Source of the DNA: a virus
DNA: 64,000 nt
Direction: 5' to 3' (one strand)
IMG/VR virus record: IMGVR_UViG_3300030333_006336
Location: 1-64,000 of that record
Shown: in pieces, positions 40,239 to 44,696 of the stretch
Layout: every line of letters starts with the position of its first letter
Position numbering within the stretch: the stretch's first letter is position 1
Made by a program: the position numbers and the translations under genes
The notes under the pieces: generated by a model
Database searches by the model: none
What the model saw: the letters and a program-made list of their open reading frames with translations, nothing else
What the model was told of the DNA's origin: nothing

Positions 40239-42914
40239 TTAAGCATCTCCAAAAACTGCAGAGCGATCTCGCCGTCCTTGGATCTGTGTTATTTGTCCCT
40301 CTAAGAAGGACTGTGTTTGTGCTGCATCTAATTGTACGTACAATTCGACCGGCCCACTTTCAGACGAATTACTCACTTGGGAACCTGCAGGCTCAAACGG
40401 ACTGACTCGCTGTTGTTTAGCTCCACCAAGTGCACGAACCAGAGGTCCTAATGCGGCAGCTGCTAGGGACATGGCGCCGAAGCCGGCTGAAATGATCATG
40501 GTTTTAACCACTGGTACATCGTTAATAGCCTCCACTGAATCCCGCATTGCTTGTGAAACTTGCTGTGCTTGGGCGCCCGAAATAGAATTCATCGCTGACC
40601 CTAGGCGTTCAAATGCGGTTGCCGTAGAGTTGACAGAATTTGCAAACGCATTAAATTGTGTCGACATTTCTACTAATTCTATCAGACTATCTAATGAACT
40701 AGCGCTCATGTCATCTGCTGCGCTAGCTATAGACCTTATACCTCCCGAAATAGAATTCCAATCTGCTCCGAATTCAGCAGCCTTTCCGAGACCCATCATA
40801 ATTTGCCCAATAGACTCTAACTTTCGAGCACTTACAAGAAACAACCCAACGCCGAGCAACGTCAAGCCCACGCCCATAGCAGCTAATCCAACACCAGCAA
40901 AGACACCTGCAGGCCCTAACAACACCAGGGCGCCCACCCATTTAAACATTGTTTCGACGGGAGCAACTTCAAACAATCCAGCAAAAGCAGTTATAAGCTG
41001 CCCCATACCTGCATACAGCGCTGCTACACTGCCAACGATAAGGGCAATACCCGCACCAAAGGGTATCAACCCAACTGATGCGGCTCCCGCTGAGGCGCCT
41101 AATTGCCTAATCACAGGACTAGCTAGACGCGCGGATAGTGCAAGAGTTCCTATGGCTGCAGAAAACTTAAGAAGCCCTTCTAAAAAGTTGGAGGCAAATT
41201 GTTGCTGGAAAAGCAAAAACGCTAGCGCGGTGAGTGCCAACGCTAAAAGTCCCGTTTTCCAAGCCAGACTACTTGATCCCGCTGCAGCAGCCTGCATTGA
41301 GAACTGCATGAGTATACTGGCAGATTTTAATAGGACCAGAAGTCCAATAATTTTAGGAAGCAAGTGTTCCATCTCCGACAGCTTTCTAATAAACTCTACT
41401 GCAGAGCGAGCTATTGATTCAAAAAGCGGCGCGTTTTCTGCTAAAATAGCTGCCATTTGTTCTTGAAAATTTTGCAAATCTTTAGCTGCTTCTGCCTGTG
41501 CGATGAGTTCTTCAGTTGACATTTGAGTGGCCCCAGCCATTAAGTCCATGCGACCCGAGAGCATTAGCGCTAGATCATTTACATTATCTAAGCCAGCAGC
41601 TTGTGCAAAATATTGTTTCTGGAAATAAGACATGCTCTCAAACGAAAGTCCAGTGTCTAGGATAGAATCTCGGATCATTCCAAAGCGGGCTACTGGATCA
41701 GTCTCCATCAGCAGGTCCATTGCATTAACAGCATTCTGTCCCAACGCAGCGTTAAGAGAACCAGCAGCCTCTGCAGCGCCTTCAAAAGTATCAAACTTTT
41801 CCGTAATACGTAAAACTTTTTCCATCTCCATGCCAGTCAATTTCTGCACACGAGCTAGTTCTTTAAAAGTTTGAACTCCATCGTTTCCAAATTTTGCTAA
41901 GCTGCTACCCATTGAGGCATATGCAGCAGCCATATCTGCCGGTATGACCCCTAACTCTTGTGATAGTGTTAATAAATCTTGGGCTATCTCACCGGAATCC
42001 TCCATAGATTGTCCAAAAAGCTTCATTGAATTTTGTACACCTTGCGCAAGATCCTCCACTGACATTCCGTATTCTTGCAGGGTACTAATAGTATCTCCAA
42101 GTTGCTGTCTCTGTCCTTCTTCGGCTAACGTAAAATCAGTTACTGTTCTATAAAGAGCCAAATGAGCTTCCTTTGCTTCGTCCATACTTACGCCGTATTG
42201 TTTTAGAGTATCGAAACTTTGCATCATGCTTTCGGTAAATTCAACATTACCACCCGTAGTGCGCTCGAAAGCTTTATACGCTGTATTAAATTGGAAAACT
42301 AGGTCTTTAATACCACCGATGACGAAGCTCTGAAGCTTACTAGCCATCGAATCAACAGCTTTACCTAGCTTCTGTGCCAGGCTATCTCCGAGGTCATTAA
42401 GAGCTTCCATGCGGCCCTCTGCGGTTCCCAGCTTTAGAACAAATTCGCCGGTTGCTTTAAGCAAGTTTTTTGAAGCATTAAGTCTACGTTGTAGTATCCG
42501 TATGGCCTCTTTGGCTTTTTTGAGGTCTTCGCCCGTCAGTTCTCCCGCTGCTATTTTGGCTTCTAGTCTGGCTTTTTCTAATTCTAATTCGTTTTCTAAA
42601 GCCTCGACGCGCCCTTGTATTGTTTTTTTGCCACTCTCTAAAAGCTCTTGCATTTTCTCTAATTTTGCAACATTTTCTTTTATGGCAAGTAAACTTTTTT
42701 CTTCTGCTTCAGCAGATTTAACAATCGCTTTAAGGATAGCCTCTTTTCTGATGGCCAACTCTCTTGCAGCATCTTCTAGAGAACCATAAGCGTCCACCAG
42801 ACGCTCAGCTTCCTTTTGCATCTCTTTGCCAAGCTTCTTATGCGTCTCTAGTTGATATTCAATTTTTTTTAAAGCTGCTAATTTGGCTTCTATGTCGTCT
42901 AATCTTTCGGCCAT
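40239..42914 (-). CDS. Tail tape measure protein
   Basis: The 891-residue protein has an N-terminal coiled coil (1-170), a conserved-looking middle (FNTAYKAFERTTGGNVEF, SMEDLAQGVQNSMKLFG), and a cluster of long hydrophobic, Ala/Gly/Leu-rich segments around 530-700 that could enter the host membrane, followed by a polar end. It is preceded by the gp26-like chaperone pair, as expected for tape measure genes. It has its own terminator-promoter junction upstream. It sets tail length and helps DNA entry. Confidence 0.9.
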   Translation of the reverse strand: MAERLDDIEAKLAALKKIEYQLETHKKLGKEMQKEAERLVDAYGSLEDAARELAIRKEAILKAIVKSAEAEEKSLLAIKENVAKLEKMQELLESGKKTIQGRVEALENELELEKARLEAKIAAGELTGEDLKKAKEAIRILQRRLNASKNLLKATGEFVLKLGTAEGRMEALNDLGDSLAQKLGKAVDSMASKLQSFVIGGIKDLVFQFNTAYKAFERTTGGNVEFTESMMQSFDTLKQYGVSMDEAKEAHLALYRTVTDFTLAEEGQRQQLGDTISTLQEYGMSVEDLAQGVQNSMKLFGQSMEDSGEIAQDLLTLSQELGVIPADMAAAYASMGSSLAKFGNDGVQTFKELARVQKLTGMEMEKVLRITEKFDTFEGAAEAAGSLNAALGQNAVNAMDLLMETDPVARFGMIRDSILDTGLSFESMSYFQKQYFAQAAGLDNVNDLALMLSGRMDLMAGATQMSTEELIAQAEAAKDLQNFQEQMAAILAENAPLFESIARSAVEFIRKLSEMEHLLPKIIGLLVLLKSASILMQFSMQAAAAGSSSLAWKTGLLALALTALAFLLFQQQFASNFLEGLLKFSAAIGTLALSARLASPVIRQLGASAGAASVGLIPFGAGIALIVGSVAALYAGMGQLITAFAGLFEVAPVETMFKWVGALVLLGPAGVFAGVGLAAMGVGLTLLGVGLFLVSARKLESIGQIMMGLGKAAEFGADWNSISGGIRSIASAADDMSASSLDSLIELVEMSTQFNAFANSVNSTATAFERLGSAMNSISGAQAQQVSQAMRDSVEAINDVPVVKTMIISAGFGAMSLAAAALGPLVRALGGAKQQRVSPFEPAGSQVSNSSESGPVELYVQLDAAQTQSFLEGQITQIQGRRDRSAVFGDA

Positions 42915-42955: not shown

Positions 42956-42983
42956 AAAAAAAGACAAACATTTAGAGTTTGTC
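42956..42983 (-). terminator. Rho-independent terminator before the tape measure gene
   Basis: GACAAAC, a 7-base loop, GTTTGTC, then TTTTTTT on the minus strand. The stop codon of the gene at 42972-43292 falls in the loop. The late-type motif follows within 5 bases. Confidence 0.8.
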
Positions 42984-43292
42984 CTTTAAGTGAGAAGGAA
43001 CAGCCGGCTGGTTATGGACACTTAAAGTTTGAGAGCGCCCTTTACCACTAGATGCTTGGTTTACAGCCTCGTTTTCCATTTCAATCTGTTTAACTAATCT
43101 TTCTACAAACCATTTTCGAAGCCCTATGGGCAGATTGTATGCTTCCGAGAAAGACCACCCTCCAGAATATTTTAAGAAAAAGAATTGTTCATACACATTT
43201 TCTATATATTCAGCTGTCAGGCCAAAAAAAGTTCGCTGAAAGCGGCACCTCCAGTAGTTGCTCATGTCCACATTCGTCGCATTGAAAATCAT
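42972..43292 (-). CDS. Tail assembly (hub) chaperone second frame
   Basis: A 106-codon frame overlapping the end of the gp26-like gene by 83 bases. The well-structured part begins at FFGLTAEYIENVYEQFF and continues with GGWSFSEAYNLPIGLRKWFVERL, typical of small tail assembly proteins just upstream of tape measure. I see no ribosome binding site before ATG 43292 or the internal ATG. It may be made as an extension of the upstream protein by frameshifting at 43224-43230. T4 gp28 is a positional alternative. Confidence 0.65.
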   Translation of the reverse strand: MIFNATNVDMSNYWRCRFQRTFFGLTAEYIENVYEQFFFLKYSGGWSFSEAYNLPIGLRKWFVERLVKQIEMENEAVNQASSGKGRSQTLSVHNQPAVPSHLKDKL

Positions 43293-44079
43293 AATTCAAT
43301 TCTACGTTTGGCGCAACTACCCGATATGCGTTACGCAAATAGCGGGAATCTAAAGAAGGAATATTTTCTACCAAATAACGTCTGGCACTAACACTGTCGT
43401 CTCCATTTACTGCCAATACCAAATGAGATAGCTGTGTTGTAACTGCTTGTTCATAAAGTTCTTGTTTGGCTTTCTTGCGATTATTAGATGACTTGCTGAT
43501 GCGGTTTTCGTCATGTCCTGTTAGGAGGCGCATTGTTACGGTCGCCCCAGAACGTGGCAAAACCACATCAAAAGTGCCATTTTGATTATCTTGTATCTCC
43601 ATATCAAGTGGAACTTCACCAGTGTACACAGTGGCGTCATTTAAATCATACGCATTTTGCTGGGTTGCTCCACAATGAGGGCAAGTAATACTAGTTTGAT
43701 ATTCCCTCCCATATCCACTTACGCGCATAGCAATAATTATGGCATTGCGATCTCCTACCAAAAGAGATTCAGCATTAATTGTTCGTTCAACAATCAAGCT
43801 TTGTATCACTCTGTCTAGAGCAACTCCTTTTTTCAGTAAAGTTTTAGACGTTAACATATCCTCTTCTTTGGCTGTCATCTGTCTAATCTCAATGGTTGTT
43901 TCTCCGTGAAGCGGATGCTGCGGTGGGTAATATCTCCCTTCTGACGGTAGCGCTACAAACTCAGTTGGCACCACAAATGCGAACCCAGGATTATCGTTTT
44001 GCAACACCGTGGGGGGAGCGTCGGTAGCCGCATCCGGCCGTGACTGTCCCATGCCCAAACGATCTTTATTTCGTGACAA
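43210..44079 (-). CDS. T4 gp26-like baseplate hub assembly chaperone with zinc ribbon
   Basis: The 289-residue protein has VPTEFVALPSEGRYYPPQHPLHG and IEIRQMTAKEEDMLTSKTLLKKG, the signature of the T4 baseplate hub chaperone family, then ITCPHCG and FQCDECG as a zinc ribbon (about residues 132-137 and 270-275). It helps assemble the hub and tape measure and is not expected in large amount in the particle. Its last codons contain seven T residues, where a shift into the next frame could occur. Confidence 0.88.
   Translation of the reverse strand: MSRNKDRLGMGQSRPDAATDAPPTVLQNDNPGFAFVVPTEFVALPSEGRYYPPQHPLHGETTIEIRQMTAKEEDMLTSKTLLKKGVALDRVIQSLIVERTINAESLLVGDRNAIIIAMRVSGYGREYQTSITCPHCGATQQNAYDLNDATVYTGEVPLDMEIQDNQNGTFDVVLPRSGATVTMRLLTGHDENRISKSSNNRKKAKQELYEQAVTTQLSHLVLAVNGDDSVSARRYLVENIPSLDSRYLRNAYRVVAPNVELNYDFQCDECGHEQLLEVPLSANFFWPDS
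43224..43230 (-). other. Candidate +1 (or -2) frameshift site, T7 run
   Basis: In the upstream frame the codons are AAC TTT TTT TGG, with the stop four codons on. The downstream frame reads ACT TTT TTT GGC. A forward slip of one base on the T run joins the two frames. A GGAGGTG ribosome-binding-like sequence lies about 16 bases upstream. Confidence 0.45.
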
Positions 44080-44108: not shown

Positions 44109-44696
44109 TTAAACGGTAAAGAATTCTTGACCACCGCCACCGCCAACAGCAATAGATGGGTTTGTAGTTTCAACGCGAGCCCAATCATACTTAAGGGTAA
44201 CAGTCATCTCAGTCAAGTCATCACCACCATACTCCAAATCGCCATATTTTACTTCTTTAATCCAAGCATTCCACAGAGTCCAAGTTTCCAAAGGCTCGCC
44301 TTCGGAGTCAATCTGAGTAATAATTACGGAACCGAGCGCTCCAGCGGATTTAGCTTTAGACATAGAACCTAGAGAGTTTGCAGTAGTAGGAGGTGAATAT
44401 CCTGATAATACCACAATATCTGACAGAGTTGCAGCCATATCTGGGCTCACAGGATCAACAAGGGTCAAACTAATATCTTGCCATGTAACGGATCCAGGAT
44501 AATAGAACGTATGGTTCAAGTATTTGTGCTCAGCTTCAGCGATCTGGAAAGACGGCTTATTAACAGTCTTTGCGTACCACAACAAGGCGCCACCTTGTGA
44601 AGATTGCACTCCTTGGAACTCAACCGTAAATCTAAATTTTCTCTTTGGATCGTTAATGGCTGAATTCTCACCAAAGTTTTCTGCCCAAAATGCCAT
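44109..44696 (-). CDS. Tail tube protein (T4 gp19-like)
   Basis: The 195-residue protein has KFRFTVEFQGV, TVNKPSFQIAEAEHKYLNHTFYYPGSVTWQDISLTLVDP and WTLWNAWIKEVKYGDLEYGGDDL, the recognisable tube fold strands of gp19. It polymerises inside the sheath. It follows the sheath gene, as in T4. Confidence 0.95.
   Translation of the reverse strand: MAFWAENFGENSAINDPKRKFRFTVEFQGVQSSQGGALLWYAKTVNKPSFQIAEAEHKYLNHTFYYPGSVTWQDISLTLVDPVSPDMAATLSDIVVLSGYSPPTTANSLGSMSKAKSAGALGSVIITQIDSEGEPLETWTLWNAWIKEVKYGDLEYGGDDLTEMTVTLKYDWARVETTNPSIAVGGGGGQEFFTV

What the first reader, a model, noticed from the sequence alone, without database searches (positions are those of the whole stretch)
43210..43292. Candidate programmed frameshift joining the hub chaperone frames
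The two frames overlap by 83 bases just upstream of the tape measure gene, in the manner of lambda G/GT. The second frame lacks a visible ribosome binding site. A T7 run in the overlap (AAC TTT TTT TGG) allows a +1 (or -2) slip that gives ...FFGLTAEYIE. A GGAGGTG lies upstream.
Basis: partly seen in the sequence, partly recalled or inferred. Interest (0 to 1): 0.6.

Follow-up and report, generated by a model that had tools for sequence, protein, structure and literature searches.

The report
Tail chaperone +1 ribosomal frameshift site
This virus very probably makes two versions of a tail-building helper protein from one gene by having some ribosomes skip one base at a run of Ts; such tricks are known in other phages, but the forward direction of the skip in these uncultivated T4-like phages looks new.

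Summary
ORF1 (PF12322; AlphaFold model closest to the HK97 tail assembly chaperone) and the +1-frame ORF2 sit between the tail tube and tape measure genes. In 175 distinct junctions from three phage groups (31-62% identity to the window's ORF1) the ORF2 frame is open after [UUU/CUU/CUA]-UGG/UAC. Selection switches from ORF1's frame to the +1 frame exactly there. In 43 of the 175 the second frame has no start codon before the site. A scan of viral contigs for ACTTTTTTTGGCCTGA, without protein information, returned 80 readable loci: all end a TAC-N gene, and all 79 testable ones continue as TAC-C in +1.

Variants (TTC TTT TGG, TTT CTT TGG, TTT CTA TGG) destroy the T7 run yet keep UUU-pyrimidine, favouring a +1 slip of tRNA-Phe over -2 or transcriptional slippage. 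The upstream GGAGGT is conserved only in the window's own group, 19 nt before the slipping codon; its role is unclear. Tail chaperone frameshifting is well known, and -1 poly-T sites are reported for other T4-like phages (Vladimirov 2022, not readable here). The +1 mode in Far-T4 phages, with one clade at -1 on the same Phe-Phe codons, is a variant. No protein product has been shown.

The parts
43210..44079 (-). ORF1, TAC-N (T4_baseplate PF12322, T4 gp26/gp51 family), 289 aa, TTG start preceded by AGAGGTG
   Evidence: PF12322 57.7 bits against cut-off 24.5, phrog_150; AlphaFold2 model pLDDT 89; top PDB matches are HK97 tail assembly chaperone 2ob9 and YqbN 3klu
42972..43223 (-). TAC-C coding stretch in the +1 frame, from GGC just after the slip to the stop; about 83 aa added to TAC-N
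   Evidence: +1 frame open in 165 of 165 untruncated relatives; purifying selection in +1 frame from the site onward; weak DUF6760 match
43222..43230 (-). Shift site TTT TTT TGG (T7 run 43224-43230); P-site UUU slips +1 to UUU while UGG waits in the A site
   Evidence: conserved in 175 distinct junctions as [TTT/CTT/CTA] T(GG/AC); reference phages
43246..43252 (-). GGAGGTG; the core GGAGGT is invariant in the window's own group, 19 nt upstream of the slipping codon; role unknown
   Evidence: 56 of 56 distinct sequences; Glu codon GAG in 32 of 32 clusters although GAG is 39% of GAA+GAG elsewhere in these ORF1s; absent from the other groups
43265..43292 (-). Upstream part of the ORF2 frame with ATG 43292, GTG 43271, ATG 43265; judged not used for initiation
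   Evidence: no Shine-Dalgarno; translation not conserved and often closed by a stop in relatives
40239..42914 (-). Tape measure protein gene, 891 aa, directly downstream
   Evidence: phrog_167 E 3.9e-7; PF20155 TMP_3 weak, E 0.0044
44109..44696 (-). Tail tube protein gene directly upstream
   Evidence: PF06841 gp19, phrog_4542

Best explanation
ORF1 and ORF2 are one tail assembly chaperone gene. Most ribosomes stop at ORF1's end and give TAC-N (289 aa). A fraction slip +1 at UUU UUU UGG: the P-site tRNA-Phe moves from UUU onto the next UUU while UGG waits in the A site, and translation goes on as GGC-CTG..., giving TAC-NC (368 aa). By analogy with lambda gpG/gpGT, the mixture coats the tape measure protein and recruits tail tube subunits. 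Shown by sequence here: the joined frames, the site, absence of usable starts in many relatives, selection in both frames, a TAC-like fold. Inferred: that slipping happens, its +1 direction, its rate, and the chaperone role.
For: Gene order tube - ORF1 - ORF2 - tape measure. +1 frame open in all 165 untruncated distinct relatives, minimum 195 nt; 43 of 175 have no start codon at all before the site, 96 no ATG, and only 20 have any start with an SD-like sequence. Codon-position variability flips from ORF1's third position to the +1 frame's third position at the TGG codon. P-site codon is TTT in 88, CTT in 15, CTA in 1 and TTC in 0 of 104 clusters, although TTC is 24% of Phe codons elsewhere in ORF1. 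16-mer DNA scan of IMG/VR made without protein information: 80 of 80 loci TAC-N, 79 of 79 testable TAC-C in +1. Reference phages with UUU-pyrimidine and a +1 ORF2: Mel-JY01, RM378, SP-15, LIS04, SagM-GXN1, BRock, LuckySocke, LR756508; in immuto the codons are TTT CTT TGG. Fold: HK97 TAC first hit, probability 0.99, E 0.035, VIA Z 5.7; YqbN Z 5.4. UUU-pyrimidine as a +1 prone site: Schwartz and Curran 1997, known here from memory and from its citation in PMC3789692.
Against: No protein or ribosome data. UUU-UGG was proposed as the +1 site of Yersinia yopN, but changing it did not remove the hybrid protein there (PMC3789692), so the hexamer alone need not suffice. No stimulatory RNA structure downstream (mean z -0.6 to -0.8, near control). 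In the window itself the T7 run also permits -2. Fold matches are modest in score.
Confidence: 0.85

Rival explanations
1. The same fusion, but by a -2 slip (as in phage Mu), giving one extra Phe (NFFFGL).
For: Window sequence C TTT TTT TGG lets the Phe tRNA re-pair two bases back; -2 reaches the same frame; Mu precedent (PMC5009743).
Against: Relatives with TTC TTT TGG (3 clusters) and TTT CTA TGG cannot re-pair properly at -2 but keep UUU-pyrimidine for +1; several distant phages keep only TTT-C.
Confidence: 0.07
2. RNA polymerase slips on the T7 run and a share of the mRNA carries an indel that joins the frames.
For: Homopolymer of seven in the window and most relatives.
Against: About half of the immuto-like group has TTTCTTTGG or TTTCTATGG and a subgroup of the window's own group has TTTCTTTTGG, with runs of only 3-4 T.
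Confidence: 0.04
3. ORF2 is a separate gene with its own start in the overlap (ATG 43292 or 43265), comparable to the separate T4 genes 26 and 51.
For: The window and about half of the relatives do have an ATG upstream of the site in that frame; T4 uses two separate PF12322 genes.
Against: No SD at any of them while nearly all neighbouring genes have one; upstream translation is not conserved; 43 of 175 have no start of any kind, often a stop directly before the site.
Confidence: 0.04

Closest known systems
Lambda gpG/gpGT tail assembly chaperone frameshift (G-T type, widespread in long-tailed phages)
   Same: Position before the tape measure gene, short and extended forms, overlap without own start, TAC-like fold.
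   Different: Lambda shifts -1; here +1 at UUU-pyrimidine, in a larger TAC-N with a zinc-ribbon-like part.
Tail assembly chaperones of T4-like phages (Vladimirov, Gautam and Davidson 2022; -1 poly-T sites as cited in PMC12846349)
   Same: Tail assembly chaperone of T4-like phages with a poly-T site near the end of TAC-N; T4 gp26 and gp51 are in the same PF12322 family.
   Different: Jumbo phages of the RaK2/BF/PA5oct kind and cyanophage S-CAM22 show T TTT TTC and a -1 ORF2; the window's lineage has a +1 ORF2. T4 itself has two separate genes.
HSTV-2 tail chaperone, Listeria phage PSA, RF2 (prfB): +1 frameshifts
   Same: +1 direction; HSTV-2 is a tail chaperone case (PMC5009743); the CTT T sites of the immuto-like group have the RF2 shift tetramer.
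   Different: No stop codon in the A site and no SD 3 nt upstream as in RF2; the slipping tRNA is mostly Phe rather than Leu or Pro.

Membership tests
Frameshifted tail assembly chaperone gene (G/GT kind) | Two overlapping frames between major tail (tube) gene and tape measure gene | tested here: met
   same order in reference phages
Frameshifted tail assembly chaperone gene (G/GT kind) | Downstream frame lacks its own initiation signal | tested here: met
   no SD; 43 of 175 relatives without any start codon before the site
Frameshifted tail assembly chaperone gene (G/GT kind) | Conserved shift site at the junction and both frames under selection | tested here: met
Frameshifted tail assembly chaperone gene (G/GT kind) | TAC fold in the short form | tested here: inconclusive
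   2ob9 and 3klu are the top matches but at Z 5.4-5.7 and E 0.035
Frameshifted tail assembly chaperone gene (G/GT kind) | Extended protein is made at a fixed low ratio and is needed for tail assembly | not testable with these tools
   needs protein data
Lambda-type -1 slippery heptamer | X XXY YYZ with -1 downstream frame | tested here: not met
   ORF2 is in the +1 frame in the window and its relatives
PF12322 T4_baseplate (T4 gp26/gp51) | Profile score over curated cut-off | tested here: met
   57.7 bits against 24.5; T4 gp26 and gp51 both match
PF20546 DUF6760 | Profile score over curated cut-off | tested here: not met
   19.8 bits against 27 for the window's ORF2; 23 of 45 relatives match only at E up to 0.1; a lead, not membership
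RF2-type +1 frameshift | SD-like element 3 nt before the slip codon and stop codon in the A site | tested here: not met
   GGAGGT lies 19 nt before the P-site codon; A-site codon is TGG
UUU-pyrimidine +1 site | P-site UUU followed by U or C | tested here: met
   window UUU-U; a TTT followed by T or C is present at every site variant seen

The most novel reading that the evidence does not exclude
In Far-T4 phages the tail chaperone ratio is set by a +1 slip at UUU-pyrimidine with no stimulatory RNA structure. A related jumbo-phage clade uses a -1 slip (U UUU UUC) at the same Phe-Phe codons, so the direction of the programmed shift changed within one gene family while the two-form output was kept.
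Probability: 0.6. Interest if true: 0.6.

Novelty: new variant of a known kind. Interest (0 to 1): 0.48.

Why it matters
It assigns function to two usually unannotated or mis-split genes in an abundant, mostly uncultivated T4-like lineage and gives a sequence signature that identifies them. If the +1 slip is real, the family offers natural site variants (UUU-U, CUU-U, UUU-C) for studying what makes a +1 site efficient, and a case where the direction of frameshifting changed while the product pair was preserved.

Tried and rejected
Downstream stimulatory structure: folding of 80 nt downstream in 168 relatives gave mean z -0.6 to -0.8 against -0.2 to -0.6 for control stretches; not convincing. 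Upstream hairpin CCGC/GCGG in the window's own group: both arms nearly invariant with no supporting pair changes beyond a wobble and broken in a few, so not claimed. Internal start at the +1 codon 14 nt before TGG (8 nt after GGAGGT): ATG or GTG in some relatives, but CAG in the window and CCG, CAG, ACG or CGG in many. GGAGGT as RF2-type stimulator: spacing 19 nt and absent outside the group. PDB sequence search with both profiles: no match. Fold of TAC-C alone: helical, pLDDT 76, no informative match. Bacterial (contractile injection system) relatives: none reached by the genome scan or in plasmids. Vladimirov 2022 is not held, so whether it already lists +1 sites is unknown.

Full report
Observation. 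The window lies in a 67.7-kb virus record. On the minus strand, ORF1 (44079..43210, 289 aa) is followed by ORF2 (43292..42972, 106 aa from its first ATG), overlapping by 83 bases; the tape measure gene (42914..40239) comes next, and the tail tube gene precedes. The T7 run is at 43230-43224, reading GCG AAC TTT TTT TGG CCT GAC AGC TGA in ORF1; ORF2 is in the +1 frame, ACT TTT TTT GGC CTG. Skipping one base gives one 368-residue product.

What the proteins are. ORF1 matches PF12322 (T4_baseplate, 57.7 bits, cut-off 24.5) and phrog_150. T4 gp26 and gp51 both belong to PF12322, gp51 with about 48 extra C-terminal residues. An AlphaFold2 model of ORF1 (pLDDT 89) has the HK97 tail assembly chaperone 2ob9 as its best PDB match (Foldseek probability 0.99, E 0.035; VIA Z 5.7 over residues 29-123), and YqbN 3klu as the next by VIA (Z 5.4); I know YqbN from memory as a skin-prophage protein at the chaperone position. 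These scores are modest, but the top two of the realigned chains agree with gene position. The rest of the model (125-285) resembles zinc ribbons, in line with its two CxxC pairs. ORF2's segment is helical and weakly resembles DUF6760. The phage's Gp23 is nearest to LR756508, Flavobacterium phage immuto, Microcystis phage Mel-JY01 and Rhodothermus phage RM378, that is, the Far-T4 side of the T4 superfamily (Far-T4 phages are described in PMC4360716, which does not mention this junction).

Conservation. Three protein-based scans of IMG/VR gave 175 distinct +1-type junctions: 54 of the window's group, 66 Mel-JY01-like, 55 immuto-like. All 165 untruncated ones have the +1 frame open for at least 195 nt beyond the site. 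The site is TTT TTT TGG CCT in most, with variants TTC TTT TGG TCT, CTT TTT TGG, TTT CTT TGG, TTT CTA TGG and TAC for TGG. At 85% protein clustering (104 clusters) the codon before TGG/TAC is TTT in 88, CTT in 15, CTA in 1 and never TTC, though TTC makes up 24% of Phe codons elsewhere in ORF1. Clusters are related, so no probability is attached to this. In the window's group, the most variable codon position is ORF1's third position up to the site and the +1 frame's third position from TGG on. In 43 of 175 the +1 frame has no ATG, GTG or TTG between its last stop and the site; only 20 have any start preceded by an SD-like sequence.

Direction and mechanism. +1 and -2 reach the same frame. The T7 run of the window allows both. 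TTC TTT TGG and TTT CTA TGG variants remove proper -2 re-pairing but keep UUU followed by a pyrimidine, on which the Phe tRNA can re-pair one base forward. Distant phages with a +1 ORF2 keep TTT-C (SP-15, SagM-GXN1, BRock, LuckySocke, LR756508) or TTT-T (RM378, LIS04, Mel-JY01). Long T runs are absent in much of the immuto-like group, which argues against transcriptional slippage. UUU-pyrimidine sites are documented +1 prone sites (Schwartz and Curran 1997, known from memory; cited in PMC3789692). A caution: UUU-UGG was proposed for Yersinia yopN-tyeA, and changing it there did not stop hybrid formation (PMC3789692). No special downstream RNA structure was found.

GGAGGT. It is invariant in the window's group (56 of 56), including a silent GAG choice, together with nearly invariant silent CCG and GCG choices nearer the site, but it is not shared by the other groups and lies 19 nt before the slipping codon. 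It may tune the rate in this group; this is not shown.

Direction across the family. Six jumbo phages (XbC2, BF, RaK2, Munch, Paride, Atu_ph07) and ten IMG/VR relatives of BF have T TTT TTC with the downstream frame in -1, as has cyanophage S-CAM22. In a TAC-N tree the six -1 phages lie on one side of a single branch (100/100), with +1 phages on more than one side of them. This fits a single change of direction, but the tree is unrooted and long branches make the deeper order unsure.

Known or new. Lambda-type G/GT frameshifting is textbook; a 2016 review says it is widely conserved 'except T4' (PMC5009743). Vladimirov et al. 2022 later identified the T4-like chaperone genes; the paper is not held, but PMC12846349 cites it for -1 poly-T slippery sequences in T4-like TAC-N genes. 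From memory, its abstract says that frameshifting is conserved in several T4-like groups and that T4 uses genes 26 and 51 instead. So the kind is known, -1 in T4-like phages is known, and +1 chaperone frameshifts are known elsewhere (HSTV-2). What appears new, subject to that unread paper, is the +1 UUU-pyrimidine site in Far-T4 phages and the change of direction at the same codons.

Noticed in passing
window 43210-44079: TAC-N carries two CxxC pairs (CPHCG near residue 131, CDECG near 265) whose modelled region resembles zinc ribbons; immuto and Mel-JY01 relatives lack these cysteines.
   Followed up: partly
window 42975-43229: The TAC-C domain weakly resembles Pfam DUF6760, of unknown function; DUF6760 may be a tail assembly chaperone extension in other contractile systems.
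   Followed up: partly
L084, L089, L083, L390: In deposited genomes (immuto, SP-15, Mel-JY01, S-CAM22) the TAC-C part is annotated as a short separate hypothetical or 'hub assembly catalyst' gene.
   Followed up: partly
L087 and L391: LR756511 and Pseudomonas phage Cygsa01 have a TAATG stop-start overlap and a -1 frame TAC-C, suggesting coupled initiation instead of a slip in these phages.
   Followed up: no
window 43246-43252: GGAGGT plus silent CCG and GCG choices are nearly invariant in the window's group although ORF2 is probably not translated there; cause unknown.
   Followed up: partly
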